Assembly: GCA_037447655.1 (NCBI GenBank) | Contig: JBBHKE010003477.1 | Coordinates: forward strand, 265,173 to 329,172 | Reading direction: 5' to 3' | DNA: 64,000 nucleotides | Origin: Zygnema cylindricum | Taxonomy: Eukaryota > Streptophyta > Zygnematophyceae > Zygnematales > Zygnemataceae | Part shown: one piece after another, positions 13,902 to 54,296 of the stretch | Numbering within the stretch: the first letter of the stretch is position 1 | Layout of the letters: every line of letters begins with the position of its first letter | The notes under the pieces: model-generated | What the model saw: only the letters and a program-made list of their open reading frames with translations | The model's database searches: none | What the model was told of the DNA's origin: nothing | Program-made: the position numbers and the translations under genes

Positions 13902-14870
13902 TTTGAGACACCAATTTCAAGATCACAACAAAAACATCGAAAAAAAACAGTTGAAAATCACATTCAATGACGCTTGCGGAACAAGGACCAGCTTTGTCAA
14001 ATAACCGATTATTTAGAATAACTAACTTTTTGAAATCTTCCTAGACTTCCCCATTCGGAATCTCCCTGGATCATGCGCTAAGCACGATTTCATGGAACAA
14101 TTTCATGCAATAACCATTTGATTTGTGACCTAAGTGCAAAAGACACGAAAAGGCGAAACAAATCGGAAAAGAAAGGATACATTTTCTAATAGAGGATTGG
14201 CCGCCATGGATGTTTTCTCCGTTCCACCTTGGCCCTCTGAAGAATCTGATATTCCTGACGGCAAAGTGGCCAACTGAACATTCGGGGTGACAGAGAACAT
14301 ACTAGCCAAAATTAGATACTCAGCTTACGTGGCAGTCCACCATGTAAAGAAGATCGTCCACCATTGGACGGAGAAAGGACTGCTGCCTGAAACTGCAGTG
14401 GTACTCAGACGTACTTGTGACTCCCGTCTTCAAAGTCCCAAAGTCTTTCAAGAGAAACAACGTAAGTACGTAACATCTAACTGCGACTCCCAAAATGTCC
14501 TCAGCCGAAGATTGCCTAGATTGAATCTCGACCGTCGATGGCAGCCATCTAGTGATAAAATCCGCAATGATGTTACTCTTACGTAGCAGTCACTCCAACG
14601 TCGCGATAATTTTCGTGTTGACACTTTGATAAGTATTTACCCTGTTCACTCAACAGTCGGTCAGTCTCCACTCTCCAGTCTCCACCGCGGTTCCAGCCCG
14701 AGGCACAGAAAAGGCGCTATCAAAGCTAAACCGTGAATCGCTATCAGTGTTAATGACAATTTATCGGCGACCTTAAATTACGACCCCCTTATTATCGATA
14801 ATAATATTTTTTCCTCTACTCTAATATAGATTACTCTTTATTAGTGTCAATTATTCAGGAAAGTACAGTA
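13902..14870. other. Transporter upstream region
   Basis: Lies 5' of the transporter start on the minus strand and should include its promoter and 5' UTR. A short plus-strand frame with a favourable start context (ATG at 14210, 22 codons) is present but has no recognisable product. Confidence 0.4.
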
Positions 14871-15485
14871 CACCGCGAATCGTAATTAGAGTAAATTACT
14901 TTAATTCGGTCGCTTGAAATTTCGACTCTATGACATCAAATAGAGTAAATGATTCTAATTTTTTCATTATTCTAGTTTAGGTAAGTTTAATTAGCGTAAA
15001 AATTTGTAATACAGGTTAATTTTAAATAGTGTGGAGTACGGACGACGTTCGACCGTGCAAAGTTGTACTTTTTGAAGTAAAAAGGTACAAATAATGATTT
15101 AATAAAATCGCACTCGCACGTGAAATCGGACTAAACGAAAAATCAGTCATATCGAAAAAAAGCCGTTCGCATAACTCTCGTGCGTCGACAGCATCGTCGT
15201 CAGTGTGAACATTAACTGACATTCAGCGCGACAAATAATACTAGCGTCATAATGACGTCAAAACTATACGGACTGACAGATTTTGTAGATCTACGTAATT
15301 TAGTGTTCATAATTTCAGCGCGGATAATTATAGCCGACATAACCCAATATAGAGTACTTAAATAAATTAGAGTAAACTTCCTTTGTGAAAAAGTTCTATC
15401 GCATAAATTAGAGTTCATTACTCTAATTGTTTTTTCTGGTTTTTTTACTCTAATTTTTTCATTACTCTAATTACGATTCGCGGTG
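14871..15485. mobile_element. TA-flanked MITE, 615 bp
   Basis: Perfect-looking terminal inverted repeats CACCGCGAATCGTAATTAG (from 14871) and its complement ending GATTCGCGGTG (15485), with TA on both sides (14869-14870 and 15486-15487). The interior is AT-rich and non-coding. Partial relatives in inverted orientation form the right ends of the 1.37-kb repeats ending at 19369 and 23353. Confidence 0.8.
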
Positions 15486-17984: not shown

Positions 17985-19369
17985 CACTGTTTCTATTTGA
18001 AAGAGATAAAAGAGAGCAACTTTTCCCTTTCACCAAAAAGAAAACATCCTCAAACACACAGCATGGATATTCCAAAACTTTCTATATACCTACAGTTGAT
18101 GAGTCTTCCTCAAATTTTCGAGGCATTGAATTTTTTTACTGTTATAATCTTTTCTCACCTTTCAATTGGGGCCCACAAAGTCGGAATGAATGACATCTCT
18201 TGTGGTTCCGCTCAAACCCTAACAATGGACCTTTATTCCCTAATTAATGCATTTAAAATACTATTTTTTCCCACATTTAGTCTTCCTGTAGTAGCAAACG
18301 CCAATGGTCAAATTTCCTCATCGCCCTTGCCAAAAAAAAACCTAAATGTCCCCTAAATACGAACGATCTTGCCACGTCATCGATGGCGGAGTTGGCGGGC
18401 AGCAAAATGTTCGCCATTTCATCCTGCAAAATTCAAATATGTAAGAATATCGCGTGAAAGCTGATGATGACGTGGGCGGAGTGTAACCCATGTCGGTGAA
18501 AGAGGAGGCGGGACTTTCACTAATCTCTGTTCCAAAAATTTTGAACAGACTTTAAGCTGGACGGCTGGACGGCGGGACGACGGGACTTTCAAGATGGCGA
18601 CGCAGTCGTCTGATTCCACACCGAACCCTAAAAAGAAAGAGTGGCTGTGATTGGTCCAAAAGGATTTTTTTTTGTGTGGTCTGTCCGCATTTGGCATGAC
18701 CTTACGCCACATATCACCCACTCCAAAGATTGTATGTTTACTCTTTTTTTGTATATTTTGTTACTCTAATTCATGTCCAAGTATGTTAAAAAACCCATAT
18801 TAGAGTTAAAAGTTACTCCTTTTAAGGGACATTTCGGTAAAATTTACGCTAAAACAGACGCGATCCTATATTATAATACAATTTTAATGAAATTGGTATG
18901 AAGTTCCCTATTCTAACTAAATAAGTGGAACGTCAAACGATAGTTACAAAGTTATTATAGAAATAAACGCAAACACGTGTTGTCGCCGTTATCCTATAAA
19001 CTTGTAACATGTAACTTAAGGTTAATGTTCTCAGTGACGACGATGTTGTCGACGGATGAAAGATATGCGAACGGATTTTTTTCGATGTGATTGAGTCATT
19101 TTATTTATTGCGACTCCACATGCGACCGCGTGTCTATTAAATCGGTATTTGTATTTTTTTATTTAAAAAAATAGAATATTGCACGGTTCGACGTCGTCCG
19201 GACTCCATACTATTTAAAAATAATCTATATTATAATTTTTTACGCTAATTAAACCTCACCTAAATTAGAATAATGAAAAAAATAGAATCGATTACTCTAT
19301 TTGATGTAATATAGTCGAAATTTCGAGCGACCGAATTAGAGTAATTTACTCTAATTACGATTCGCGGTG
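17985..19369. repeat. 1.37-kb dispersed repeat, left copy
   Basis: Direct repeat of 22003-23353, about 90% identical by eye in the compared part. It begins CACTGTTTCTATTTGA and ends GATTCGCGGTG followed by TA, so the right end belongs to the TA-flanked MITE family. The central part (about 18360-18720) is more GC-rich than the rest. It holds a short conserved frame, ATG at 18594 to stop at 18650 (18 codons, MATQSSDSTPNPKKKEWL), that is also present in the other copy with conservative differences. It may be a non-autonomous DNA element carrying captured host sequence. Confidence 0.65.
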
Positions 19370-19371
19370 TA

Positions 19372-22002: not shown

Positions 22003-23353
22003 CCCTGTTTTTATTTGAGGGAGATAAAAGAGAGCAACTTTTCCCTTTCACCAAAAAAAAAACATCCTCAATCACACAGCATAGATATTCCAAAACTTTA
22101 CATATACCTACAGTTGATGAGTCTTCCTCGAATTTTCGAGGCATTGATTTATTTTACTGTTATAATCTTTTCTCACCTTTAAATCGGGGCCCACAAAGTC
22201 AGAATGAATGGCATCTTTTGTGATTCCGCTCAAACTCTATCAATGGACTTTTATTCTCCAATTAATACATTTAAAATACTATTATTTCCCACATTTGGTC
22301 TTCCGGTAGTAGCAATCGCCAATGGTCAATTTTCCTCATCGCCCTCGCCAAAATAATAGCCTACAAGTCCCCTAAATACGAACGATCTTGCCACGTCATC
22401 GATGGTTGAGTTGGCGGGCAGCAAAATGTTCGCTATTTCGTCTTGCAAAATTCAATTATGTAAGAATATCGCGTGAAAGCTGATGATGACGTGGGCGGAG
22501 TGTAATCCATGTCGGTGAAAGAGGAGGCGGGACTTTGATTGACCCCTGTTCCAAAAATGTTGAACAGACTTTCACGATGGCGGCGCAGTCGTCAGATTCC
22601 ACACCTAACCCTAAAAGGAAAGAGTGGCTGTGATTGGTCCAAGAGGATTTAATTTTGTGAGGTCTGTCCGCATTTGGCGTGACCTTACGCCACATATCAC
22701 CCACTCCAAATATTGTATGTTTACTCTTTTTTTGTATATTTTGTTACTCTAATTCATGTCCAAGTATGTTAAAAAACCGACATTAGAGTTAAAAGTTACT
22801 CCTTTTAAGGGACATTTCGGTAAAATTTACGCTAAAACAGACGCGATCTGATATTAGAATACAATTTTAATGAAATTAGTGCGAAGTTCTCTATTCTAAC
22901 AAAATACGCGGATCGTGAAAGCGCAGTTACAAAGCTATTATGAAAATAAACGCAAACACGTGTTGTCGCCATTATCCTATAAACTTGTAACATGTAACTT
23001 AAGGTTAATGTTCTCACTAACGACGATGTTGTCGACGGATGAAAGATATGCAAACGGATTTTTTTTCGATGTGATTGAGTCTTTTTGTTTATTGCGACTG
23101 CACCTGCGACCGCGAGTCTATTAAATCGGTATTTGTACCTTTTTATTTAAAAAAGTACAATATTGCACGGTTCGACGTCGTCCGTACTCCACACTAATTA
23201 AAAATAACCTATATTATATTTTTTTATGCTAACTAAACCTCACCTAAATTAGAATAATGAAAAAGATAGAATCGATTACTCTATTTGATGTGATATAGTC
23301 AAAATTTCGAGCGACCGAATTAGAGTAATTTACTCTAATTACGATTCGCAGTG
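22003..23353. repeat. 1.37-kb dispersed repeat, right copy
   Basis: Second copy of the repeat at 17985-19369, same orientation, ending GATTCGCAGTG followed by TA. It retains the 18-codon frame (22577-22633) with Thr-to-Ala and Lys-to-Arg differences. It lies 3' of the Copia remnant, so the two copies bracket it. They are not its LTRs, because the Copia polypurine tract is followed by a different sequence. Confidence 0.65.
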
Positions 23354-23363
23354 TACAATACAG

Positions 23364-23434: not shown

Positions 23435-23978
23435 TATAATACAATACAATACAGCCCTAACGTTGATGTTGTCTTTCCTAGTTTTCTACCAAAAACATAC
23501 TTTCTCACTCGTAGGCATGTAAATCGGCGGTTACGATGGAGATACAAGATTCTCACTTTAAGATTGGCGGTCACCGATTTAAAAAAAATGAGAAGTGTGT
23601 ACGGAGAAAAAATATTTCTAAGTAGCAAATGTTAGCAGTAGGGTATGTCCCCATGTACTTATAACTTAGCGAAACTACTTTGTATTTTAATGCGGATCCG
23701 TCGGACCCGGTTTTCAAGTGTCCCTATGTGTAAGAACGTAATCGTAACCTACATTTGTGACGATTGTATGCGCCGACAATACCTGTGACGGCTGTCAACG
23801 TCCACAATCTGTCATGTTGCACGTTTTTTTCGAACTGCTTATGACGTCGCATGTCTTACCGTGACATTGTAGACGTACCGCCTTCTAGCCTGTGCAGTTT
23901 CACGGTTGAAGAAGATGCGATTTGCCTTCGCATCTCTTGTCCGGTCGACGTGAAATGGCATCGGAATTTCGAGACCCC

Positions 23979-25193
23979 TGTCATGCCGCATGGTATCGGA
24001 CGCATACGTGCACAATATTTTGCATGCGTACACGATATCGCGCACGCACGCACAATATTGTGCTCGCACGCGCGATATTCTGCATGCGTGCACGATACGG
24101 TGCACGCACACGCGAATTGTGTCCACGCGCACGATATCGTGCACGCGTTCGCGATATTCGGCGTGCGCGTGATTTCATTCACACGCGCACGATATCATTC
24201 TCGCACGCACGATATTTTAGCGTGCGTGTATGATTTTCGGTCGCACGTGCGACCGCGATTTATTTATGTTTGATGTGTACGCTATTCGCGTACACGTCTA
24301 ATAGGACACATACTAATTTCGTGCGTGGGTACCATGTCGTTTCGTGCGCAGGTACACATTTTTCAAGTATTTCGTGCGATACCATATATTTCGTGCGATA
24401 TGTTTCGTTTCGTGCATACGCACGCGATTTGGGGAGTATCGACGTGAAGTATCGTTTGGAGGCGTATCGCGATTTCCGGGCGACGCGACGATTCATATGT
24501 TTATTTAAGTCGCGAACCCATGTAGGTTCGCGCATACATGTAGTTAGGGAGGGTTTTTACCCTCGGACGGTGGATTTTGTTAGGCGTACGGCAGACGATG
24601 TTGGCCGCCTATTGGCCAAACATTTTAAGTAGTTCGTTCATGTGAACTAGCCTAGACTTAGGTTAGGGTTTGCGTATGCGTAGCGTAGCTAATACTTAGT
24701 CTATTTTCAAACTTATAATTTCTAGCTTTTGGACAAGAATTTTCTCTTGGCGGCGGAGCTTTTCTCTTGCTCTCTCTCTCACTGATTGCTCAAGTTTCTT
24801 CTTTTCTTTTGCTAGCTAGCTGTAGATGCTAGATAGTTTACGTATATTCTCCCTTGTAATTATGCCCATGCTTTTAATCCACGCGGCTCAAAGCCAAGTC
24901 CGTAGGGTTCCCTCCAACTTGTGTCATTTTTGGGAAGTGGTGGATTGGAGTTCGTGTGGAGAAGCATCCGGATCCCGCTGCCCTTTCCAGGGACAGCTGA
25001 ACAGTTTGGGTGTTTGTATTTGTGTTGTTTGTATTTTCGGTTGGGGATGGAAGGGTGAATTTTGGCCGAATTTGGAGTTTTCCTTATTTTTGGTTGGAAT
25101 TATTTATTTTGCTTCGTTGCTTACCTATGAGATAACTCTTGTAAAGAATACGTTTAAGACCCAAGAGCCTAGGGCTACCTTGTGGCTGAGTAT
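23979..25193 (+). repeat. Gypsy 5' LTR body
   Basis: About 1.2 kb repeated at 33821-35036, with roughly 3-4% differences by eye. It starts TGTCATGCCGCATGG and the shared part ends GTGGCTGAGTAT. It lacks the 191-bp segment that flanks the 3' copy on both sides. It contains the 20-bp tandem array, then a run of TTTCGTGCGATA-type motifs, and T-rich sequence that probably contains the transcription start. Confidence 0.85.
24011..24228. repeat. 20-bp CpG-dense tandem array in the 5' LTR
   Basis: Eleven units of about 20 bp, most resembling CACGATATCGTGCACGCACG. Nearly every unit has several CpG sites and a partly palindromic core (GATATC, AATATT or TGCATGC). Two units are 1-2 bp short. The same array occurs in the 3' copy at about 33853-34071. 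Confidence 0.9.
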
Positions 25194-25410
25194 TCTTGTC
25201 CAAAAGCCTTCGCATTTCAAAGGCTTTTATTTGAATTAAATTATTAAAAATATCAAATTTATTTTATAAAAAGAAAAAAAATATCACCTTTCATTTTCAG
25301 TTTTAATTCATAGCTTGGTCTCTTCTATTTTCTTTCCAAATTACATTTCGTTTTCAGTTTTGCTTTGAAATAAAAATATTACAAAATTAATTAATTTTAT
25401 AAATTTTATT

Positions 25411-25446
<36 letters not shown>

Positions 25447-26547
25447 ATATTGTTTTTGTTTCCGCTATTTCTTTCTTTTAATCTTTGTCTCTTATTCTGT
25501 CACCACTATATTTCTTGGCTTTAGTGTTAAACCTAAATTTAGTATCAAATTTAGGGTTAATCTGCAAAATTAGGGTTGCAGCATATTTAGGGTTTATTCC
25601 TTTTGATTCCAGTCCTTAGGTCAGTATCCTTTTATTCTTTGGCTGCAGATTTGGAGTCTTGGCCGTCTAGAATTAGGGTTTTCCTTTGGAATTAGGGTTT
25701 TCCAAGTGGAATTAGGGTTGACTGCTGGCTTTGGATTATTGTGGTCACAAGTTGGGCTGTATATCTGGAGTTTGAGCGGCCTCGTACTTTATTCTAACAC
25801 ACGTTCCCTATCTATCGTATTTGTTTGTCTTATTGTTTATTTTTCTTCCACCGAACGCTATCTTCCCTCCCTTCCATTGATCCCCTAACATTCCACGACA
25901 TACATCTTCACGGTACAAACGGGTCTTGCGGAGGATTATTTTGGAGACGTTGCTCGGAGCGAATTTCGTGGAGTGAATTTTATCACAGGGAGCTGTGCAA
26001 AACCCGACTTGCTTCGAACAAGTTCGGTTCACCCTTAGTGCTCACCAAAGCACTAAAGGTGTCTGTAAGTAGCCGATGCCTTGCGGGTGCAAGAGCGTTC
26101 CGATTTAGTGTGGACACTCGTGTAGGGGATCGGTGTGGAAGGGTTCCATAGTGAACCTTTTTTATAGAGCATTTGCATTTTCCGGCTTTCCCTGCATGCT
26201 ATCTGGCCCTAAGTGGCCTTGGATTTTCTTGTGACTATCTGGAGTGGGATTTCTTGCTAGATCTTGCCGTGGGTGGCACTTTGTAGACCTTTTCCCGGCT
26301 GTGTTCTTGTAGATCTGCACCCTAGGGTGCCTAGATAGCAATTTTCTTGTTTTTATAGATCTAGCCCTTTGGCCTTGCCAACTGTTTGCAGGGTAGAGGT
26401 TTTGGTAAACCGACTTCTTGCTAGATACGACCATCGGGTCTTGATAGTGACTGGTGTGTTGACTGGACGAGTGGATTAGTTTGACATGTGTTGCATCTCG
26501 ATTAGGTCTTGCCAAACATTTCATTATTGTAGTCAGGGTTTTCCCCT
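25194..26547 (+). other. Gypsy 5' leader
   Basis: Non-coding part between the LTR body and gag. It contains a short inverted repeat (AAAAGCCTT...AAGGCTTTT, 25201-25228), a 31-base A run (25415-25445), three GAATTAGGGTT repeats (about 25669-25720), and a CCACGACA motif near 25896 similar to the element's outer end. No tRNA-complementary primer site was recognised. Confidence 0.6.
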
Positions 26548-27171
26548 TTGTTTGTGCCCACAGATTGGGATAACCTTCATTATTTATCCGAGTCCACCCA
26601 AAGAGGTACACTGTATCGTCCTCCGCAGATAAATCCTTCGGATTTTCCCGAATCATGGACCACATCCGATCCGATTACGAATCGCAGATCGTCGTCAGTG
26701 CGGTCTGGTCTCACATCTACGTCATCTGTGTCCTCGGTTTCATCTAGGTCACAACTAGAGGGGACCGAAGAAGACTTCCTAGAGGAAACCTTTCCTACTC
26801 CTCACACTCGTAGGTCCCCTATCAGCCCATCTTTGGCACAACCGGCCAATCCTTCCCTTTATGACATGGCTTTCTCTTCAGAGGGATCCATGGGAAGGAT
26901 GCAATTCTGCTTTTCCAGATTAAAGGACACCATGTCCTTGTCGCATTTCCGTATGTTATACAATACGGAAATGAGGGATTTAGCATTTAGATATCAGGAT
27001 AGGTTTGACCTCTGTGTCGCTTTTTCCCTACACGGTCGATACCTTCGTGGTACGGCCCGCACACTCTACACTCGCAAGTACAAGGATGTGCTTCCGATGA
27101 CAAAGTACGTGGCTCCCTTTGCGGGGTTACCAGAAGTCTTAGGCCAAGTGGATATCCCATATCAGGCACCA
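26548..27171 (+). CDS. gag: Gypsy gag, N-terminal segment
   Basis: First open segment of the polyprotein. It has a Ser/Thr/Pro-rich start, then the beginning of a capsid-like region (DLAFRYQDRFDLCVAF). The frame is open from about 26548, but the first in-frame ATG is at 26866. Translation may therefore start there, or upstream through a spliced leader; a TTTGTGCCCACAG acceptor-like sequence lies at the 5' end of the frame. The frame runs into a stop at 27184, while the same protein continues in the next frame from about 27171 (a one-base shift near an A pair). Confidence 0.75.
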
Positions 27172-28845
27172 AGACAGCTGTATTAGATGCGAATGGGGAC
27201 GAGTTGTATCCAGCTTTCCCTGAGGTTCCGCGTCAGTATGCGGTGGCTGCCCGAGCGGCGGTCCCAGCTAGAGTTAGGGGCACCATTCGCTTACGTGACC
27301 CTCTCTCAGTCATGTTTGACATCCTCCAAGAGGAGTACCGGATGCAAAATGCGGATCAGATCAAAGAGTTAATGAACTTCGAGCGTAGGCCTGGCGAAAC
27401 TGCCCCTGCCTTGCGAGCTCGGATGGAAATACTACGAGAAGCATTACCAGACTTCATGTCAGATGCGGAGGCTGTCCAGATATTTGTGGGACAGTTTCCA
27501 GGTCCATCAAAGAGGTTTATCCAAAACCACCTTAGTCAGATGTATGGACTGAAATTCACCTTTGAACAAGCGGCTCAATACGCGGTAGAGTATGAGATGC
27601 AGACCTCGTGGTGGGATGCCCATGAGCGTTCCAAACCTCCTCACAGAGAACCAGTTAATCCATCTCCTCCTCCACCTAAAAACCCATGGCCTCCTAATAG
27701 GCCCCAGAAGACGCCGGCCATGGGAACTCCACCCGTTAGTCCCGGAAACCGAATGTGTTTCCGATGTGGAAAAACCGGGCACGATGCCCGCATGTGTCCG
27801 GACAAGGCGGCCACTTGCACTCATTGCCACGAAAAGGGACATTATGTCCATCGGTGCCACATCAAGGACCCTAATTTCACCTATCAAAATCAGATAAAGA
27901 ACGGTGGAATTCCGGCCCGTTCCGCGAAACCAGTCACCCCGTCTAAGGAGACCGAGAAAGAGGAAGTTCCCCCTAAGATCTCTCGTAGAGAGAGAGAAAA
28001 GGCCGAACTTCAAGCCACAATGGCGGCCATGATGAAAGAGCAATTCGCAGCTTTCATGGCGGAAATGAAACCCCAGTTTACTGGGATGGCCAGGACCGTT
28101 GTCCACATGCCGTCGTTGGCCGGGCGAACCCTTCGGGATTCCACCGTCCAACAACGGGTTGCCACATTTGAAAAGGGCTCAGCAGATCATAACCGAGTGG
28201 GCAAATTACAAAATTCTCGTGTCCCACTCTCATTTGCAAAAGAGCCTCTGCCTTCCCTACCGGACACAGTTTATACCATCGCGGCAGAGGCACTGACCAT
28301 ATTGGATGGAACTATTCATGAGGCTCATCGGGTAAAGGAGCGATTAAGTATTCTTTCCGCAATATTAGAGGATGTACCCAAAGCCCTTCCCCTCGTTGAT
28401 GAGGTCGCAGCGGCAACCGCTTTGAGAGCTCTGCAGTTGAACCGCAGTCTCTCAGCGGTTCAACCCGTTACTACGGAAGAGCGTCGTAATCTCGATCCCC
28501 ATATCAGTTTCTTTGATAACTCACGGGGATCATTCTCAGTGAACGGTGTTCATCCCACTCTTCCTCTCATGGACACCGGGGCCAAACTCGTGATCCTCGG
28601 ATCCGGATTTGGGCTCAAGCTTGGTCTGACAATAGACAAGCTTCAGGCGACCACTACCCGTCTTGTTACTTCGGCTGGGACCACGGAGCCGGTCCTCGGA
28701 ATCACAAAGGACCCGCTCAGCTTTCGGTTTGAGACAGGAACCGAAAATGAGTCCGTTGAAATTGCAGTCAAAGCATTAGTCACTAAATGTGACGACTATG
28801 AGTGTTTGGTGGGTCAAACGTTATATTCCGAATTGGCGGTGGTGT
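27171..28845 (+). CDS. gag-pro: Gypsy gag C-terminal part, zinc knuckles and protease
   Basis: Continues the capsid-like region (IKELMNFERRPGETAPALRA, then FEQAAQYAVEYE). Two CCHC zinc knuckles of the form C-x2-C-x4-H-x4-C follow (about 27750-27860; CFRCGKTGHDARMC and CTHCHEKGHYVHRC), which bind nucleic acid in nucleocapsid proteins. A basic/acidic linker leads to a retropepsin-like aspartic protease with the active site MDTGA (Asp codon 28572-28574). The reading moves to the next frame at about 28845, within a GGTGGTGTGG stretch. Confidence 0.85.
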
Positions 28846-29262
28846 GGACATGCACGACCAAACATTTTCTTACCGACCGACACACTTTCCGGAGCGCAAA
28901 ATCTGCCTCCCTCTCATTTCAGCCCGCCGACCTTTGCCCACTATGGCTCACTCGGCTACGGCTCTTCCCGCATTTTTGGGGAACTCCGTTGGGGAGGAAA
29001 TTTTCCACTCTCTTTCGGCCGAAGAAATTATACCGGATAGTTCCCCCTTACCCGAGCTCTTTGCGGAACCGGGTTTTCTTATTAATTCTCACACATTTGA
29101 CAGTATTTATAAGTCCACATTATCTATTCCATTAACGCCTATCCCTCCTATACCTACAGTGGTAACCGATCCTTCGGGTTTCCTCCCAATCAGTTGGAAG
29201 CCCGTACAGCTGAGTCCTCATACAGACGGGGTCGTTATATTAGATCTATTCGCTGGGATGGC
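28845..29262 (+). CDS. Gypsy polyprotein: linker and start of methyltransferase
   Basis: Third open segment. It holds a Pro-rich linker after the protease, then motif I of a cytosine-5 DNA methyltransferase (VVILDLFAGM, about 29232-29262), the loop that binds S-adenosylmethionine. The frame is lost just after motif I in a short G-rich stretch (GGGATGG), and the methyltransferase continues in the next frame. Confidence 0.8.
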
Positions 29263-30230
29263 ACTTCACTATTGTCATGTTTACGGAATGGTCTCCTCAT
29301 CCGTCACTACTATGCAGTAGAAATTGATGCATTAGCTAGGAAAGCACAATTGCACTACTGTAATCTCTTGCATTCACAATATCCACACTTGTTTCCAAAG
29401 TCAGCCTTTCTACACATGCACACTGCTCTTCCACAAGACATCCGCATCCTTAGTAATCATCATCTCCGAGATGTCGAACCGATAGACCTTGTTTTCGGAG
29501 GGTGGGAGTGTCAAGGCATGTCTCGGGCCGGCAAAGGTCTTGGTTTGGCGGATCCCCGTACCAAATTGTTTTTTGAGCTTTTGAGGGTCCTTCGTTTTCT
29601 TCAAACCATGGCCAAGCCTGTCGGATACATTTTAGAGAACGTCGCCGCTTATAATGATCCTCGGCCAACAGTTCTGGCTGACTATAAGCGCATAGAACAT
29701 CTTATCGGACCCCCGCTAATTATTGATGCCGCTCGGCATGGGTCCTTGGCACATCGGGTTCGCTCCAAATGGACGAACCTAATCGATGTTGGTCGTCTTC
29801 GTGAGGCTAATTTGTCGGTACGACCTCCGACTATAGACATTACGACCGCTTTGCTTCCCTTCCACCAAGTCCAATCTTGTGTCCAATCTGACTACCCTCC
29901 GAATTACAACATTAATGTTCCTGGCCAGCCCCTCAAGGTGCTTCCTACTTTAGTGTCTTACCCTAATTCCCATGCATACTCTCATAACGGTCCAGGCATG
30001 CTCCGGAATAATGTCACTGGAGAGTTAGAGGAGCCTACTGCCACAGAACGGGAACATCTCATGCATTTTATTCCAGGCACGACTGCGGCCCCCGGCCTTA
30101 CGGATAGACAGCGTTGCACTTTGTTGGGTAGGGTCATGGATCCTCAATCTTTATCATTTGTCTTAGGTCTCGGCCTTGCAGCTGGTCGCTACGCACAGAA
30201 TCACCCCGTGCAACCAGCTGGGGGGGGGAA
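29262..30230 (+). CDS. Cytosine-5 DNA methyltransferase domain in the Gypsy polyprotein
   Basis: Predicted to transfer a methyl group from S-adenosylmethionine to cytosine C5. Visible motifs after motif I are YYAVEIDALARK (motif II region), GGWECQGMSRAGKGLG (motif IV; catalytic Cys codon 29509-29511), GYILENVAAY (motif VI, ENV), SLAHRVRSKWTNLI (motif VIII-like), and a C-terminal block with TDRQRCTLLGRVMD (motif X region). Motif IV has Glu-Cys-Gln where most enzymes have Pro-Cys-Gln. The SLAHRVR block resembles DNMT3-like and some phage or bacterial enzymes more than the usual QRR form. It is fused in frame to reverse transcriptase downstream. No CXXC, BAH or other targeting domain is seen. 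The domain is clear; activity of this copy is uncertain. Confidence 0.88.
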
Positions 30231-31992
30231 TATAGCGGCTCCTTCACGGCTTGTTTCCTCTCGCACCTCTCCTAGTCTAAAGGGAAATCCATTTCAGTTT
30301 TTTCTCTTCCCTTCTCTCACACCGGCGGTTAAGGACATCTCCATCTATGATTTCCTCAACCCCAGTCATATGTCTTGGGAAATCCCGGCCTATACAGCCG
30401 TTCAATCCACAATTTCATCGTTTCTTGGCCCTCCACCGCACTGGACAGCTGCATTTCCGACGCGTAGCTGGCACCATTGGGTGAATTGCTTGCAGCAAAC
30501 TCCGGTAAAATACGAGTTAGGCCACTCACTCATCGCCGATGAGCAAATTGCATTTGCTCAGGCAATGGAAGCTTTCACTATTAAGAGTCCGGAGACGCCC
30601 AAGTGGAAGTTCGGTTCCAGTCTCACAATGGCGGAACAGGCACTATTAAGTGACACAGTCACCCGTCATATAGATGCGTTTGCTTTCTCCATGAATGACC
30701 TTGGACGTCATTCTACTTACAAAATGTCTATCGACCTTGAAGACGATCGACCTATCTTTAAGCCGAAACACCGTCTCTCTGAAATGGAATGGGAGATGGT
30801 GGACAAAAGATGCGCTGAATTGGAAGAAGCCGGTCTAATCTATCGGTCGGATTCCACCTTTGCCGCCCCCACAGTCATGCCTAGGAAGAAAGATTCCGAC
30901 GGAAATTTTACTGAGCGAAGAATGTGTGGGGACTATCGAGAGCTCAATGCTCGGACCGTTCAAGACCGCCACCCTATGCCTCTAGCGGAGGAAATATTTG
31001 ACCATGTAGGTGGTGCAAAGTTCTTTAGCATTCTTGACTTGCGTCAAGGGTTTAACCAGATTGAAATCGAGGAAAGAGATCGGCATAAAACTGCATTTTG
31101 GGGCAGTGATGGTCGGTGGGAATGGGCAGTCATGCCTTTCGGTCTTAAAAACGCACCCGCCGTGTTTCAAAAAGTCATGGATTCGGTGCTGGGTGGATGT
31201 AAATTTGCCCGGTGCTACATCGATGACTTGATAATCGCTTCCGCCACGGTCGAGGAACACGCCCGCCATATTGAGTGGGTTCTCACCGAGTTGAAGAAAG
31301 TCGGGCTGAAGTGTCACCCAGCCAAGTGTACGTTCGGTGCGGAGGGAGTGCCCTACCTCGGCCATTTTATTTCGGCTGAGGGCATCACCCCCTTGGAAGC
31401 TAAGGTAGAGGCAATCACGAAATTGCCAGCTCCCACAGATCTCACTAGTCTGAGGGCTTTTCTCGGACTAGCCAATTATTACCGTCGGTTTGTACTAAAT
31501 TTTAGTACGATTGCTTCTCCCCTCAATGACCTTCTCAAAAAAGAAGTGCCTTTTGTTTGGGGACCCGCCCAAGTAGAAGCGTTTCAAAAACTGAAAACCG
31601 CCCTCTCTAGCGCTCCCATTCTTCGACCTCCTAACCACAAGCTTCCCTTTTGCCTACAAACCGATTTCGGGAAGCCAGGCATTGCGGCTATTTTAACGCA
31701 AAGAGAGTTGAATGGAGAGGAATACGTAGTGGCATACGCTAGCCGGAGCAATAACCGAGCTGAATCTAATTACAGTAGTTATGAGGGTGAATGTCTCGCC
31801 GCGGTATGGGGTATTGTTCATTTTCGACATTATCTTTACGGCAAGCCATTCACGCTCCTAACTGATCATCAACCCCTTCATTGGTTGATGACCAACGATA
31901 AGCTTTCAGGGAAGCTTGCCCGATGGGCTTTAATTTTACAAGAGTACGACGTTGAGATCATCCATCGGCCCGGTTTGTTAAGCTTGAACGCA
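30231..31992 (+). CDS. pol: Gypsy reverse transcriptase and RNase H
   Basis: Same frame as the methyltransferase. After a linker the RT domain shows KMSIDLEDDRPIFKPKHRLS, MCGDYRELNARTV, FFSILDLRQGFNQIEIEE (first catalytic Asp), MPFGLKNAPAVFQKVMD and CYIDD (31213-31227; catalytic YIDD). GHFISAEGI, LRAFLGLANYYRRFV and a Gypsy-type RNase H follow, with TDFGKPGIAAIL, YEGECLAAVW and LLTDHQPLHWL supplying Asp, Glu and Asp. The frame slips near 31990, after HRPG, where RNase H passes into the integrase linker. Confidence 0.93.
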
Positions 31993-33075
31993 ACGGGATT
32001 TCTCGAAATCCATTACCTCGGACCACCGATAACGGAGTCCGACAAGATTTCGACGAGGATGAGGTACTAGTAATGTTGGCTGGTGCCTATATCATTTGCT
32101 GTCTCTCTTCTGTTCCTCACCCTCGACCGGCCACAGATCCGTGGCGCGACGGCCCATTAATCCTCTTCCTCTCCTCTCAAACACTTCGGCCCGGTACTAC
32201 CGCCGAGGAGGAAGACGGAGTGGAGAAACGAGCCAAAATTTTTTTGTGGCTCGGCGGATCTTTAGTTCGATTGCTGGCGGACAGCAGTCATCGGCATGTT
32301 CCCGGGCCAACCAAGCGTTTGTCCTTGATTGAGCAGATACATACCGAGCTTGGCCATTATGGGACCAAGCGTACTTTGAGCCTTGTACATGCACGCTATT
32401 GGTGGTCTAGAATGCGGGCGGATGTGGCGGCCATTCTCCATAAATGCGCCACATGCGACCGGCTACTCACCTCTTTTTGTAATCGGCAGGTGTCTCTACA
32501 ACCATTGCCCATCAGAGGATTGTTTTATCGCTCGTCTGTGGATCTCGCCGGACCGTTTCCCTTATCTCAAAAGGGGAAACAATACACCATGATAATGATT
32601 GAAAATTTTAGCAAGTGGGTAGATGTGGTCGCTCTTCCCCACAAGACCGCTAAATTGACCACTGCTGCTTTTAAAGAGCACGTTCTCATGCGTTATGGAG
32701 CTCCTGCGGAGGTTCTCACGGACCAGGGTACGGAGTTCCGCGGGGAATTTCAAGAGATGTTGGATGAAGCTTTAATTGATCATCGCCGGACGAGTCGTGA
32801 TCACCCACAAGCCGATGGCTTAGCGGAACGAGCCGTCCAAACTTTCAAGCGGGCTCTTCGAAAGCATTGTTTGGAGAAACACATCTCTGTTTGGGACGAA
32901 TCCTTGGGCTATATCACCATGGGGTACCGGATGTCCGTACAGGCTAGTTTGGCTAATTTCAGCCCGTACTATATTCTCTTCGGCCGAGCACCCTTGCTCG
33001 GTCGGAATATTCAGAAAGCAGCAAGTTTACCTTTGCCTCTAATGTCTGACACCATATTCTTGGAAGAACTACTCG
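31993..33075 (+). CDS. Gypsy integrase
   Basis: Inserts the element DNA into the genome. The N-terminal HHCC zinc-binding region is at about 32335-32465 (HTELGHYGTKRTL...CATCDR). The catalytic core follows with the D-D-E triad in SSVDLAGPF, LTDQGTEF and GLAERAVQTF. The spacing is normal and no stop lies within the core. The frame shifts at about 33075, after the core. Confidence 0.92.
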
Positions 33076-33610
33076 CCGTGCATTGCTTTTCGCTCGTGAG
33101 ATGCCCATGGCTTTTGATAATTTGCAGATTGCCCAACATCGGGATACCTTGCGCTTTGCCACTACGCGAAGTGGCAGTTACAAGCCTCAACTGAAATCTT
33201 ACCAAGTCGGAGATTACGTGTACCTTCGTCGACAATCTTTCGACACTTTGGACACAGATGTTTCACCACACATTCTTCGTGTGGTGGAAATAGATGCTAA
33301 TGGGATGTTGGGTTTGCAGGGTGCGGATACAAGGATAACCCGAGAGCATTCGAAGAACTGTGCACCTTGTTACTTACCGGATTTGTCACAGGATATGGAT
33401 CCGATGAGGATGCCAATCACAGAGGCGACGAAATGTACCATTTGCAGGCGAGCAGACGGCGAGACTTCCATGCTCTTGTGCGACCATTGTAACCAAGGGT
33501 TCCACATGGAGTGTTTAGTTCCTCCATTGACTGCTGTGCCAGGTGGCCATTGGTTTTGCCATGGCTGTCGTGAGCTGCCAGCGGTTTTGACCAGCTCCTT
33601 CGCAGGCTAA
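33076..33610 (+). CDS. Gypsy integrase C-terminus with PHD finger
   Basis: The segment begins with the conserved region after the integrase core (AFDNLQIAQHRDTLRF, then the SH3-like VGDYVYLRR). It ends with a PHD finger at about 33430-33580, pattern C4-H-C3: CTICRRADGETSMLLCDHC, GFHMEC, and HWFCHGC. PHD fingers commonly read histone H3 tails, so this may steer integration, a job done by chromodomains in many plant Gypsy elements. The reading frame ends with TAA at 33608-33610, just before the polypurine run. Confidence 0.9.
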
Positions 33611-33627
33611 GGAGCTGGGGGGGGGGG
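33611..33627 (+). other. Polypurine tract
   Basis: GGAGCT followed by eleven G directly after the polyprotein stop, the expected position of the plus-strand primer. The sequence that follows is the 191-bp repeat, not TGTCATG. Confidence 0.75.
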
Positions 33628-33818
33628 AATTATAGGATTCACTTATTGCTAAGGGAGTATTCTTCCCTTTTTATTCTTTTGCCATCTTCACCTTTATTCT
33701 TTTGCATGTTGTATATACATTTTGACCATCTCATTCATTTGCGTTTGTATATATGTTTGGAGCTTGACTTTGCTGGTTGGGATGCATGTTCGCTCTTTCT
33801 AGTCTCTCATGCACGACA
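33628..33818 (+). repeat. 191-bp direct repeat, copy 1
   Basis: Starts AATTATAGGATTCAC and ends CATGCACGACA. It appears identical to 35037-35227. It sits between the polypurine tract and the 3' LTR body, with GC as the only spacer before TGTCATG. Confidence 0.95.
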
Positions 33819-33820
33819 GC

Positions 33821-35036
33821 TGTCATGCCGCATGGTATCGGACGCATACGTGCACAATATTTTGCATGCGTACACGATATCGCGCACAGCACGCACAATA
33901 TTGTGCTCGCACGCGCGATATTCTGCATGCGTGCACGATACGGTGCACGCACACGCGATATTGTGTCCACGCGCACGATATCGTGCACGCGTTCGCGATA
34001 TTCGGCGTGCGCGTGATTTCATTCACACGCGCACGATATCATTCTCGCACGCACGATATTTTAGCGTGCGTGTATGATTTTCGGTCGCACGTGCGACCGC
34101 GATTTATTTATGTTTGATGTGTACGCTATTCGCGTACACGTCTAATAGGACACATACTAATTTCGTGCGTGGTACCATGTCGTTTCGTGCGCAGGTACAC
34201 ATTTTTCAAGTATTTCGTGCGATACCATATATTTCGTGCGATATGTTTCGTTTCGTGCATACGCACGCGATTTGGGGAGTATCGACGTGAAGTATCGTTT
34301 GGAGGCGTATCGCGATTTCCGGGCGACGCGACGATTCATATGTTTATTTAAGTCGCGAACCCATGTAGGTTCGCGCATACATGTAGTTAGGGAGGGTTTT
34401 TACCCTCGGACAGTGGATTATGCGGAACGTGCGGCAGACAATGTTGGCCGCCTATTGGCCAACATTCTAAGTAGTTCTTTCATGTGAACTAGCCTAGACT
34501 TAGGTTAGGGTTTGCGTAGGCGTAGCGTAGCTAATACTTAGTCTATTTTCAGACTTAGAATTTCTAGCTTTTGGACAAGAATTTTCTCTTGGCGGCGGAG
34601 CTTTCTCTTGCTCTCTCTCTCACCGATTGCTCAAGTTTCTTCCTTTCTTTTGCTAGCTAGCTGTAGAGGCTAGATAGTTTACGTACATTCTCTCTTGTAA
34701 TTCTGCCCACGCTTTTAATCCACGCGGCTCAAAGCCAAGTCCGGAAGGTTTCCCTCCAACTTGTGTCATTTTTGGGAAGTGGTGGATTGGAGTTCGTGTG
34801 GAGAAGCATCCGGATCCGGCTGCCCTTCCCACGGACAGCCGAACGGTTTGGGTGTTGGTATTTGTGTTGTTTGTATTTTCGGTTGGGAATGGAAGGGTGA
34901 TTTTTGGCCGAATTTGGAGTTTTCCTTGTTTTTGGTTGGAATTATTTATTTTGCTTTGCTGCTTTCTTATGAGATAACTCTTGTAAAGAATACGTAGAAG
35001 ACCCAAGAGCCTAGTGGCTACCTTGTGGCTGAGTAT
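33821..35036 (+). repeat. Gypsy 3' LTR body
   Basis: Repeat of 23979-25193, including the 20-bp CpG array (about 33853-34071). It differs from the 5' copy by scattered substitutions and 1-bp indels, with a denser cluster near 34410-34435. After GAGTAT it runs directly into copy 2 of the 191-bp repeat. Confidence 0.9.
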
Positions 35037-35227
35037 AATTATAGGATTCACTTATTGCTAAGGGAGTATTCTTCCCTTTTTATTCTTTTGCCATCTTCAC
35101 CTTTATTCTTTTGCATGTTGTATATACATTTTGACCATCTCATTCATTTGCGTTTGTATATATGTTTGGAGCTTGACTTTGCTGGTTGGGATGCATGTTC
35201 GCTCTTTCTAGTCTCTCATGCACGACA
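35037..35227 (+). repeat. 191-bp direct repeat, copy 2, outer end of the element
   Basis: Identical by eye to 33628-33818. Its last bases GACA are the inverted complement of the element's first bases TGTC, and CCCC follows on the outside. It therefore forms the right boundary of the insertion. Confidence 0.9.
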
Positions 35228-35682
35228 CCCCTGCAAATAAAAAAATTTGTACTGAACGAAAACAGACAAAACCAAACAAAATGTGTACTTTTTTTTGTTG
35301 TATTGAAATTAAACGGACAAAGCAAAGCGAATTCTGAACTTTTCTTTGTCTTTGGAAAGCGTGTGAAATTTTTCGAAAATTACGGCACGTGCGAATATAT
35401 GTTCTTATTTGTTTATAGAAAATCCCTAGTTTTTAAACACATTGCGCATGTGTTTTAAAGATAAGGTTGAAGATGACGTTTTTTTTCGTCAAAGTGGGTC
35501 GAAAAACACAAGACGACAAATTTTTGTACATCCTAAGTTCGAGGATGACGCAAATTGTACTCTACAAATTTGCGATTCTTTCGTGCGGTTCAAACTTAGG
35601 CAGTACGACGCTAAGTTTTACAAGAAAACGACAGAAAAAAACCCTTACTTACGCACATGGGGACATACCCTAATTCTGTTTA

Positions 35683-42901: not shown

Positions 42902-43580
42902 TAGTGTGCCTCGTCCGGATAATAAAACAGTTCGTACCGCTCCGGGAGGCGAGAACGATCTTCTTTACCGGTCATCCAAATTCCAAAATGGCAAATCGAC
43001 AAACCGCTTTTTGGCAGCTCCTTTAGATTTTTGACGTTTTCGATCAACTCTACTGCAAACCGACTGACGGATCTACTTTAACGAGCGGCTGATTCTGCAA
43101 ATGTTGGTTTCCCAGCTTTTTGTACGATAAATGTACGAATTCAGGACCACACGTGGTGTAATTGTATTAGCTCCAATAAAATCTGGCTTCTGGCAGGATT
43201 CGAACCTGAACATTCACGTTTTTGTCAACTTTTTAAATTTCTGTCCTTTCTTCCTGACTTTGTGATTTTATTTTTCACGGCATGAAACAAGAAATAAATA
43301 AATAAAATTCCGTACAGTGAAAAAGTGCCCCTGAGAAAGTGGCCCCTTGTAACTTTTTGGTGTCCATAACTTGCAGCGCGTCTATAAGTGTGCGAGAAAC
43401 GGTCGAAGCCATCTGAGATAACTTTTTCCTCGGGATTATGCGTTATCTTGAAGGCAGTTTTTAAGCATAAGGTTTTTCACTTTTTCGGGATTAGATCACA
43501 AGCAGGGAACCATTCTATCGTTACTACCAACCCTAGCACTTTCTTTTAAAACATAGACCGGTAGACTTCAGGTATTCAGC

Positions 43581-45900
43581 ATGTGTCGTCCTCCTGACGT
43601 CCTGAATCAACTATCTGCGGCTGAGAGACGAAGACAGCTTGCAGCACAGCTTTTTAATGGAGGAGATGAGTCGTACAATGGTGGAAGCCATGGCTCAGCA
43701 GCAGGATTTGATTCCATGGCTGGAAGAGAATGGGAAGACCTACAACAGTCTGACGAGATTCCTGTCTCTCAGGCAGAGAGAGTATGGCACTGGCAGCAAC
43801 AGCTGGCAGCTTCTGGTTTGTCATCGGGGCTACAGACAGGACAAAAAGAGATGTTGTTGAAGCAGTTTGGTGCTCCTGTGATGAATCGTGGACCGGCAGT
43901 GAGCAATATGGGAAAAGCCACTGACCAGTAAGTCAAGAGGAAAACTTATCTGCTTATGTAATTCTGTTGTATTTTTTTGCTCCGTCTTTTTAACAAAATA
44001 CTAGGAAGGCTATGTTTTCCTTTGTTTTTTTTGTTTTCCGTTTTTTGTTACTAAGTTATCTTCATTTTTCTGTTTTCTGCTACTGTTACTTTTCCTATTT
44101 CCGATTAGACTTCTAGCCTTTTTTACTGTACCTTTGAAATTTGTTTCTTGTACCTGTGGCTCTTTATTTCTGCTGTTGCTTTTTTTGAGGTTTCTGGCTA
44201 TGTTTGTATTTGGTTTTCAATGGAGTTGCTGCCCTGTATTACTGAAAAATATTTTGTTTAAACCTATGTTAATAAAAATACTACGTTGTATACCAGTGAC
44301 GTAGAGGTCGAAAGGTAGCGATCTATGTTTATGAGAGTACTATGTCAATGAACACACTGTTAATGAAAACAATTTATTTGTGATATGCAGAGGTCGGAAG
44401 GCAGTTCGACAAATCCGATCTCGAGTCCTGGATGGACACAACAATCAATCAAAGGGCATTCCTACGGTGGACACGGCATCCTGGAAAGCTCCTACGCAGA
44501 GAAATGTCCCTCATCAGGCGCCCGTGCTTTCGCCCTGGGGTTCTATGCCTCCAGCTATGACTGTGACACAGATCACACCTCAAAATGTTATGCCCGGGGC
44601 TGTTTCCCTAGGAGGGAATGCTGCGGCTGCAGCGGCCATGTATGGGCAAATGAGAGTGGCGAATAGGGTTTCAAATAATGCATCATGGACTCCACAGGCA
44701 GATGGTACTGAGAATCTGGACCAGTGGCTTCAGGAAACTGTGCAGTTTCCGGCTCCTAAGGGGCGGAAGATGCAGATTTCTCCATCCATGGCGCCACAGA
44801 TGCAGCAGCCATGGGGAATGAGTGCCATGGATTCTTTCGAGATGAACGGACAAGAGAATCAGTTCGACAATCAGTTTGGAATCGTGGAGAGTTTGGACAT
44901 GGATGATGACGACCAGATGGATAATGACGACGGAACAAATGACAAGAAAATAAGAAGGTATGCTAGGTTTAGTAGTGTCTAATTGACGTGCTGTTTGCGA
45001 TGCATTCTTCTAACCTATCCGATCGCATTTGTTGATGCAATGTCTGACTTCTCTGGGTTGTTTTCTGCTTTAAACAGGATGTTGTCGAACCGAGCATCGG
45101 CAAAGCGATCGCGACAGCGTCGACAGGAGAGGCTTGGAGAACTTGAGATTCAAACAGCCAAACTCCGAGTTGAAAATACAACGATTACCAGAAAATATCA
45201 CGAGGCAGTTGACCAGGCTCGTCGCTATCAGGAAGAGAATCAGAAGCTTCGAATGGACCTCGAGAACCTTCGAAGTGAGCTCGAAACTATGAAGATGCGA
45301 TCACGACATTCTGGTACCAGTCCTGTAAAGCAAGAAAGTGGCAAAACATCGGCACATAGTGCAGCGACGGCCATCCGAGTACCTCCAACAAAGGAGGAAA
45401 TGCATAACGAAGCCCACAGTTACCCAACCACAGACAACCATTTTCCAGAAGAAAAGTGTGATGGGCAAGAGAGTGGTGGCCAGATCAGCAATAATGATGA
45501 CTGCTCCACCAAGATCTTAAATCCCGCTGATTTCGCAGCATTGGTGTCTCCCGGACAATTCATTAACAGGAATGATTTCAAAAAAGGCTTTAGCAACAAT
45601 GAAGAATCGGAAATGCGTCCACCGATGGAGACAGTAAAGGATATTGTGAAAACAGAACAGTGGGTGGACACAATATCTCATGCAATGGAACAGGGAAGTC
45701 ACAAAATCAACAGTCCTCCGGCCAGTGGTGTTACTTCGTCTGGAATGAGTATGCCTGACTCGACCAATCCCGGGAGCCCATCGAACGATATATGCGACCT
45801 TGACAGTCTGGGCTTGCCTGTACTCGATACGGGTCTTTTGGGACCAGACAGTTTAGGAGATGAGTGGTTCGAGAGTCTCGTTCAGTGCATGGATGAGTAG
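43581..45900 (+). CDS. bZIP transcription factor, copy A
   Basis: Predicted nuclear DNA-binding regulator of 578 residues. Exons 43581-43927, 44391-44957 and 45078-45900 join in phase at GT-AG junctions. The N-terminal region is Gln/Met-rich with an acidic stretch (DMDDDDQMDNDD) just before the basic region. The second intron splits KKIRR from MLSNRASAKRSRQRR, giving the plant-type N-x7-R basic region (Asn309, Arg317). The zipper has Leu327, Leu334, Ile341, Ala348, Tyr355, Leu362 and Leu369 at heptad positions. The C-terminus ends in an acidic, hydrophobic segment (DEWFESLVQCMDE) that could activate transcription. The start is the first ATG of exon 1. The subgroup is not assigned; the basic region resembles plant bZIPs generally. 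Confidence 0.92.
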
Positions 45901-53771: not shown

Positions 53772-54296
53772 TACTGCAAACCGACTGACGGATCTACTAT
53801 AACGAGCGGCTGATTTCTGCAATTCCATGCTTTTTGTACGATTACTGTACGAATTCAGGACCACACGTGGTCTATTTGTATTAGCCTCCAGTAAAACCCT
53901 GTCTTCTGGCAGGATTCAACCTGAACATTCACGTTTTTGTCAACTTTTTAAATTTCTGTCCTTTCTTCCTGATTTTGTGATTTTATTTTTCACGGCATGA
54001 AACATGAAAATAAATAAATAAAATTCCGTACAATGAAAAAGTGCCCCTGTGAACAATCTGAAGTGGCCCCTTGAAATTTTTTGGTGTCCATAACTTGCAG
54101 CGCTTCTATAAGTGTCCGAGAAACGGTCGAAGCCAACTGAGATGACTCTTTCCTCGGGATTATGCGTTCACTTGAGGGCAGCTTTTAAGCATAAGGTTTT
54201 TCGGGATTAGACCACAAGCAGGGAACATTCCTATCGTTGCTACCAACCCTAGCACTTCCTTTTAAAACATAAACCGGTAGGCTTCAGGTATTCAGC

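What the first reader, a model, noticed from the sequence alone, without database searches (positions are those of the whole stretch)
28845..33610. Gypsy retrotransposon encoding both a cytosine-5 DNA methyltransferase and a PHD finger
The polyprotein places a methyltransferase between protease and reverse transcriptase and ends in a C4HC3 PHD finger after the integrase. One element would thus carry a DNA-methylation writer and a probable histone reader. Methyltransferase-bearing Gypsy elements have been reported in charophytes and suggested to methylate their own DNA (recalled). The pairing with a terminal PHD finger is what I would examine as new. A possible role is to mark the new copy or choose chromatin where silencing is tolerated; this is inference.
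Basis: partly seen in the sequence, partly recalled or inferred. Interest (0 to 1): 0.92.

Follow-up and report, generated by a model that had tools for sequence, protein, structure and literature searches.

The report
Jumping gene with methylator and PHD
An abundant mobile element in this genome carries, in one long protein, both an enzyme that looks able to methylate DNA and a finger domain of the kind that reads chromatin, so copies may mark their own DNA and choose where to land.

Summary
The window has a retrotransposon (23979-35227) coding gag, protease, Dnmt3-type cytosine methyltransferase (MT), reverse transcriptase, RNase H, DDE integrase and C4HC3 PHD finger, here in broken, overlapping frames. 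It is not a chance nest: another copy in the genome has all of it in one uninterrupted 2395-codon frame, and a distant relative has it in 2358 aa. The genome search listed 123 MT matches from 119 scored of 1831 candidates. Of 150 listed integrase-tail/PHD matches, 42 have a listed MT 2.3-4.1 kb upstream on the same strand, none in the wrong order. MT and PHD keep 77% identity while fourfold sites are saturated. The ends are split direct repeats X-int-Y-GC-X-Y with 4-bp target duplications in 8 of 11 insertions. MT-bearing Gypsy elements with DIRS-like repeats are known from Klebsormidium (PMC5890265). The conserved PHD, the duplications, the palindromic Y/X junction and two MT positions were not met in the papers seen. 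Function (self-methylation plus PHD-guided integration) is inferred. Host species not identified.

The parts
23975..23978 (.). CCCC, 5' target-site duplication
23979..25193 (+). X repeat, 5' copy (A1); begins TGTCATGC; holds a CpG-rich array of 20-nt units
   Evidence: 96.3% identical to 33820-35036
25194..26532 (+). leader, taken as untranslated; by eye no TGG-type tRNA primer site directly after X
   Evidence: sequence
26533..29135 (+). gag region (by position) in two overlapping frames (26533-27186, no Pfam hit; 27009-29135); zinc knuckle about 27756-27800, aspartyl protease about 28536-28709
29243..29257 (+). MT motif I (DLFAG) in frame 28802-29320, different from the rest of the MT
29302..30312 (+). 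Dnmt3-type cytosine-5 methyltransferase: motif IV GWECQ (catalytic Cys codon 29509-29511), ENV from 29635, RVRSKWTN from 29755
30910..31365 (+). reverse transcriptase
31558..31947 (+). RNase H
29490..31990 (+). block identical in several copies, probably a collapsed repeat in the assembly
32310..32807 (+). integrase: H2C2 zinc site 32310-32462 and DDE core (rve) 32538-32807
33050..33433 (+). integrase C-terminal region leading into the PHD
33434..33568 (+). PHD finger, C4HC3, end of the polyprotein
33617..33627 (+). G11 run, probable polypurine tract, directly before Y
33628..33818 (+). Y repeat, inner copy (B1), ends GCACGACA
33819..33820 (+). GC spacer; gives the palindrome GACA-GC-TGTC
33821..35036 (+). 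X repeat, 3' copy (A2)
35037..35227 (+). Y repeat, terminal copy (B2), identical to 33628-33818
35228..35231 (.). CCCC, 3' target-site duplication

Best explanation
It is one copy of a multi-copy retrotransposon family with a Gypsy-type polyprotein (gag, protease, Dnmt3-type MT, RT, RNase H, DDE integrase, PHD) and split direct repeats (X-int-Y-GC-X-Y) instead of LTRs. Shown here: the domain order, its recurrence, selection on MT and PHD, and the 4-bp target duplications expected of a DDE integrase. Inferred: the MT, being in Pol beside RT, methylates the new cDNA in the particle, so the copy enters the nucleus already carrying the host's CG mark; the PHD, sitting where chromodomains sit in chromoviral integrases, tethers the integrase to a histone H3 tail and biases insertion to tolerant chromatin. 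Also inferred: reverse transcription starts Y at the polypurine run and ends at X; joining of those ends gives the X|Y junction; the integrase uses the internal GACA-GC-TGTC junction as its ends, which yields X-int-YXY.
For: Domains. Uninterrupted 2395-codon frame with gag, two CCHC, PR, MT, RT, RH, IN, PHD. Distant relative P0008 with the same order in 2358 aa. Collinear from gag to PHD in 7 of 13 elements examined; MT in 9 of 13, PHD in 12 of 13, the losses going with loss of other Pol parts. PHD in 9 of 9 loci where Y-X-Y and its upstream sequence were held. Pairing in place and order: 42 of 150 listed PHD matches with a listed MT 2281-4103 bp upstream (median 2767), 0 in wrong order, 1 on the opposite strand. 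Selection. Dnmt3 type: the 50 listed fold matches of relative P0018 are all DNMT3 entries, and DNMT3A is the best solved-structure sequence match of the window's own MT. PHD nearest, among solved structures, to PHF12, KDM5 (Lid) and KAT6 fingers, and in the protein search to animal PHRF1-type proteins. Target duplications exact in 8 of 11 evaluable insertions. Same repeat plan in a second subfamily with X repeats 931 of 931 identical. Precedent for MT in Pol and the self-methylation idea.
Against: No activity, expression or methylation data here. The Klebsormidium Gypsy MT showed no methylation in yeast (inconclusive by its authors). Motif IV reads GWECQ instead of the usual PCQ; this also occurs in relatives P0001, P0008, P0018, P0019 and P0020. 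The copy at C1344 has ENI where others have ENV. The PHD lacks the cage-type Trp before the zinc His (Gly there; recalled rule), so what it binds is open. Many listed copies carry stops inside the MT. Three of 11 insertions lack an exact target duplication. No primer site was recognised, so the reverse-transcription model is incomplete. C-to-T differences between copies are raised in CG and also in CHG against CHH, so they point to host methylation as much as to the element's own enzyme, and other substitutions are raised there too: inconclusive.
Confidence: 0.45

Rival explanations
1. The MT limits the element itself: it methylates and silences new or sister copies, lowering copy number and host damage, while the PHD is an unrelated integrase tether.
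For: Slowing of retrotransposition to the host's benefit is one possibility named by PMC5890265; silent KnitGypsy copies are methylated in that alga.
Against: 123 listed MT matches from 119 scored of 1831 candidates and X repeats identical in one copy do not look like a tightly limited element.
Confidence: 0.2
2. MT and PHD form a reader-writer unit like the ADD and MT parts of animal DNMT3: the PHD senses H3 and gates or directs methylation at the insertion site, not only on cDNA.
For: Both domains kept together in copies of different subfamilies and in distant relatives; MT is Dnmt3-type.
Against: They lie more than 1000 residues apart in a polyprotein with a protease and would probably be separated; the finger is an ordinary PHD by Pfam, not an ADD.
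Confidence: 0.15
3. MT and PHD are passengers: captured once and carried without use.
For: Many copies are broken; MT evolves faster than RT (76.8 against 93.4% identity); within the subfamily MT dN/dS is 0.31-0.70.
Against: MT and PHD keep 76.8 and 76.5% identity with fourfold sites saturated (only 14 fourfold sites in the PHD); the Cys, Glu and Arg of motifs IV, VI and VIII are invariant in 13 sequences.
Confidence: 0.07
4. The YXY end and the pairing are assembly artefacts from joining collapsed repeats.
For: A 2.5-kb block is identical across several copies, so collapse probably occurs in this assembly.
Against: YXY recurs in other loci with 79-98% identity to the window and in a second subfamily; exact target duplications flank X and terminal Y; P0008 comes from another data set.
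Confidence: 0.03

Closest known systems
KnitGypsy-Dnmt3 of Klebsormidium nitens (PMC5890265; sections 6, 9, 10, 11 and passages read, figures and supplements not seen)
   Same: Dnmt3-related MT in Pol of an element with Gypsy domains; repeats described in its Fig. 4 legend as the same as those of a DIRS element; MT under purifying selection.
   Different: No PHD in the main text (0 occurrences); no target duplications or junction described in the sections read; fewer copies reported than in Symbiodinium.
SymbioDIRS-Dnmt3 of Symbiodinium (PMC5890265)
   Same: Dnmt3 MT in Pol; A-B-A-B repeats; two gene orders; many copies.
   Different: Tyrosine recombinase instead of DDE integrase; no PHD in the main text.
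DIRS/PAT elements (recalled)
   Same: Split direct repeats A-ORF-B-A-B.
   Different: Here a DDE integrase and 4-bp target duplications; no tyrosine recombinase among the Pfam hits.
Chromoviruses (chromodomain Gypsy elements; recalled)
   Same: Chromatin-type domain at the integrase C-terminus.
   Different: PHD in place of a chromodomain; no chromodomain hit.
Metagenomic polyproteins P0003, P0004, P0005, P0020
   Same: Related MT, Gypsy-type integrase; PHD in P0003 and P0004.
   Different: MT comes directly before the integrase (with RT and RNase H seen upstream of it in P0005 only; the other three proteins show no RT before the MT), not between protease and RT; P0003 and P0004 run on for about 330-360 residues after the PHD.

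Membership tests
Ty3/Gypsy retrotransposons | Pol order protease, RT, RNase H, DDE integrase | tested here: met
Ty3/Gypsy retrotransposons | two complete LTRs | tested here: not met
   X-int-Y-GC-X-Y in the window and in C1344
Ty3/Gypsy retrotransposons | 4-6 bp target duplication and TG..CA ends | tested here: met
   4 bp exact in 8 of 11; TGTC...GACA
Ty3/Gypsy retrotransposons | RT phylogeny within Gypsy | not tested
   no reference RT set was at hand; Pfam hits only
KnitGypsy-Dnmt3 kind | Dnmt3-type MT inside Pol of an element with Gypsy domains | tested here: met
KnitGypsy-Dnmt3 kind | DIRS-like repeat plan | tested here: met
KnitGypsy-Dnmt3 kind | common descent with the Klebsormidium sequences | not tested
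   sequences not held
DIRS/PAT | tyrosine recombinase | tested here: not met
   rve integrase instead; no recombinase in the Pfam scan of the six ORFs
DIRS/PAT | A-B-A-B split repeats | tested here: met
DIRS/PAT | no target duplication (recalled) | tested here: not met
Chromoviruses | chromodomain after the integrase | tested here: not met
Dnmt3 methyltransferases | catalytic Cys, motif VI Glu, motif VIII Arg and Dnmt3-like fold | tested here: met
   (fold model is of relative P0018)
Dnmt3 methyltransferases | DNA methylation activity | not testable with these tools
   needs a bench assay
PHD histone readers | C4HC3 zinc pattern | tested here: met
PHD histone readers | binding to a histone peptide | not testable with these tools
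   needs a bench assay

The most novel reading that the evidence does not exclude
A Gypsy-type lineage has given up its LTR ends: reverse transcription makes ordinary YX-int-YX cDNA, the ends are joined into a circle (leaving the X|Y junction), the Pol-linked Dnmt3 methylates that DNA, and the DDE integrase, steered by its PHD, inserts it through the internal palindrome GACA-GC-TGTC, so that integration runs through a two-LTR-circle junction, a route once proposed and then abandoned for retroviruses (recalled).
Probability: 0.15. Interest if true: 0.88.

Novelty: new variant of a known kind. Interest (0 to 1): 0.7.

Why it matters
Chromatin-based silencing is a main defence against retrotransposons. 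Here a large, partly intact family carries a writer of the silencing mark and a probable reader together, under selection. It makes testable whether elements mark their own DNA before integration and use histone state to choose sites. The split repeats with a DDE integrase and target duplications also pose a concrete question about which DNA form such an integrase can use. If the host proves to be Zygnema cf. cylindricum, the reported 9-fold or larger PHD family there (PMC9915684, passages) may be largely retrotransposon.

Tried and rejected
Considered and dropped. (1) Chance nested insertion of MT or PHD: rejected. (2) Ordinary LTR element with an extra 191-bp piece at one end: rejected, because the same X-int-Y-GC-X-Y plan occurs in other copies and in a second subfamily. 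(3) Frame breaks in the window as evidence of a multi-ORF element: rejected, since other copies have longer joined frames and two of the breaks lie near the edges of the identical block. (4) Primer binding site: no TGG-type tRNA site seen by eye directly after X; left open. (5) Methylation scar test by C-to-T context: inconclusive. (6) Host identification: size and contig lengths resemble Zygnema cf. cylindricum SAG 698-1a (359.8 Mb, N50 214 kb), but its scaffold number (3,587) differs from the 2689 contigs here; Closterium was also considered; not settled. (7) Literature for a PHD in Gypsy polyproteins: searches (open-access text without figures) gave no such report in the passages I opened; most listed papers were not opened. 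(8) Four PHD matches with no listed MT, chosen from near the top of the list, were checked: three do have an MT at the expected place and strand, in all three read in two frames and in one also with stops; the fourth holds an MT fragment on the other strand next to a gag piece. So gaps in the lists are partly due to scoring caps.
Full report
What was checked. The window is G000:C2602:265173-329172 of an unnamed 352.8-Mb genome in 2689 contigs. The zinc knuckle and protease hits fall under Pfam's cut-offs in this copy; one protease model passes in relative P0008 (26.3 against 24.3 bits). The copy's frame is broken, and MT motif I sits in a different frame from motifs IV-VIII.

The element and its ends. 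Self-comparison shows X 23978-25193 against 33820-35036 (96.3%) and Y 33628-33818 against 35037-35227 (100%). The order is X-int-Y-GC-X-Y, the element starts TGTCATGC and ends GCACGACA, and CCCC flanks both ends. In the own-genome search with the Y-X-Y stretch, 10 places (own included) match positions 1-1600 and one more 2-1600; others match X alone or X-Y (only 40 of 1193 candidates were scored). Exact 4-bp duplications flank 8 of 11 insertions for which I held both flanks: window CCCC, C1063 TTGT, C2234 TAGA, C2495 GGAT, C1825 CCCA (a deletion derivative), solo X-Y at C1414 CTTA, C2287 AGAA (a rearranged copy), C1344 TTGG; not C1535, C624, or C666 (3 of 4 bases). At equal base frequencies chance would give about 0.04 of 11. 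Copies with only one flank held were not counted.

Is it one family or a chance nest? Thirteen elements were compared (the window and 12 fetched; L030 and L031 are one element). Seven are collinear from gag to PHD (window, C1063, C2495, C2234, C449, C1317, C228). MT is found in 9 of 13 and PHD in 12 of 13. The four without MT (C1002, C1825, C1535, C631) also lack other Pol parts, and the one without a PHD hit (C631) also lacks RT and integrase core. Among L001-L020, all 9 loci that hold Y-X-Y with its upstream sequence have the PHD; a tenth, L014, matches only the integrase tail and not the finger. A copy at C1344, from a subfamily with 77% MT identity, has gag, two CCHC, PR, MT, RT, RH, IN and PHD in one uninterrupted 2395-codon frame, with X repeats 931 of 931 identical. 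A second sample of 8 MT matches from the table (ranks 25, 40, 55, 70, 85, 100, 115, plus rank 107 added by choice) shows MT followed by RT and RNase H in 7 of 8 and PHD in 5 of 8 (one of the 5 only in part); the other three are cut inside or before the integrase.

Genome-wide. The MT search listed 123 matches, 63-100% identical, from 119 scored of 1831 candidates. The search with the integrase tail plus PHD listed 150 from 150 scored of 1740 (repeated). Both lists are capped, so they are lower bounds and cannot show absence. 42 of the 150 have a listed MT 2281-4103 bp upstream on the same strand, median 2767; none in the wrong order; one near pair lies on opposite strands. Four chosen PHD matches without a listed MT were checked at the expected place: three have an MT there (read in two frames), one has a fragment on the other strand.

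Assembly caution. Between about 29.49 and 31.99 kb the window is identical to C1063, C2495, C2234 and C449 (2.4-2.5 kb), while the neighbouring 400-base bins differ by 1.5-3.8% on the left and 9-10% on the right. C2304 is identical over about 2.0 kb and stays at 99-100% up to about 33.2 kb. I read the block as a collapsed repeat; gene conversion is possible. The evidence above does not rest on that block alone: C1506, C1317, C228 and C1344 do not share it.

Selection. Between the window and C1344, fourfold sites differ at 63-86% by domain (saturated), yet MT keeps 76.8%, PHD 76.5%, integrase 85.2%, RT 93.4%, gag 69.1% (14 fourfold sites only in the PHD). Within the subfamily dN/dS is 0.31-0.70 for MT, 0.08-0.25 for PHD (51 codons) and 0.08-0.42 for RT, values that include decay of dead copies. 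So MT is constrained, but less tightly than RT.

Relatives elsewhere. Protein searches found 7 MT relatives, 6 integrase-PHD relatives (four further hits are animal proteins, three of them named PHRF1 or PHD and RING finger protein 1) and 4 more MT relatives. P0008 has the window's order in 2358 aa. P0005 has RT, RNase H, MT, integrase zinc site; P0003 and P0004 have MT, integrase, PHD and a long tail. In a tree of 14 MT rows the 6 rows with MT before RT and the other 8 are separated with 100/100 support; the order labels of P0002, P0018 and P0021 were set by eye, and P0006, P0007 and P0019 have no known order. A 10-row integrase tree is compatible but weakly supported. So the MT occupies two positions in Pol, while the PHD follows the integrase in the proteins that reach that far; six of those were found by searching with the PHD region, P0003 and P0004 by searching with the MT.

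Enzyme type. The window's MT matches DNMT3A best among solved structures (1.1e-7). A model of relative P0018 (mean pLDDT 68.8 over 503 residues, mostly 75-95 from about 170 to 470) has DNMT3 entries in all 50 listed fold matches. The Cys, Glu and Arg of motifs IV, VI and VIII are invariant in 13 sequences. Motif IV reads GWECQ here; motif VI reads ENI in C1344.

PHD. The finger is C4HC3 and nearest, among solved structures, to PHF12, KDM5 (Lid) and KAT6 fingers, and it aligns with PHRF1 fingers. The position that holds a cage Trp in H3K4me3 readers (recalled rule) lies in CNQGFH, with no Trp there, which fits a reader of unmodified H3 better; this is inference. P0003, P0004 and P0013 do have a Trp next to the zinc His, so binding may differ in relatives.

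How it probably works. Shown: order, recurrence, constraint, ends, duplications. Inferred: MT methylates cDNA in the particle; PHD tethers the integrase. Y begins directly at the end of the G run in both subfamilies (in C1344 with three G kept), as expected if plus-strand synthesis starts there; X ends at the leader. Conventional synthesis would then give YX-int-YX, and joining of its ends would give the X|Y junction seen in the genome. Cutting at GACA-GC-TGTC then gives X-int-YXY. A purely linear scheme with template switching is not excluded.

Against known systems. PMC5890265 (sections 6, 9, 10, 11 and passages) reports KnitGypsy-Dnmt3 with Gypsy domains and DIRS-like repeats, and proposes self-methylation. 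Its main text has no PHD; I did not see its figures or supplements. PMC6338049 (passages) names known accessory domains and cites that work. PMC9915684 (passages) reports a PHD family at least 9-fold larger in Zygnema cf. cylindricum SAG 698-1a, a genome of 359.8 Mb. I could not name the host here, so this is only a lead.

Verdict. A real, conserved, multi-copy element; a new variant of a known kind; functions of MT and PHD untested.

Noticed in passing
43051-48532 and 53772-59292: Large direct duplication (91.5% identical) holding ORFs that look bZIP-like by eye in each copy.
   Followed up: no
17987-19371 and 22005-23355; 14868-15216 inverted: Direct repeats of about 1.4 kb, 89.9% identical, with a related inverted piece; perhaps another LTR element or solo copies.
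   Followed up: no
49422-50576 (-): 384-aa open frame not searched against any library; unknown nature.
   Followed up: no
23979-25193: X repeat has the highest CpG ratio of the stretches measured (1.58 against 0.77-1.04 outside the terminal repeats) and an array of 20-nt CpG-rich units; the C1344 X does not show this (0.87).
   Followed up: partly
29490-31990: Block identical across several copies while flanks differ: probable collapsed repeat in the assembly.
   Followed up: partly
P0003 and P0004, after the PHD: C-terminal extension of roughly 330-360 residues with no Pfam hit at E 0.01.
   Followed up: no
L027 5742-6701 (-): A more distant integrase relative (about 49% identity) on the opposite strand inside the C1535 copy.
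   Followed up: no
PMC9915684: Published PHD family expansion in Zygnema cf. cylindricum may reflect PHD-bearing retrotransposons; host identity not proven.
   Followed up: partly
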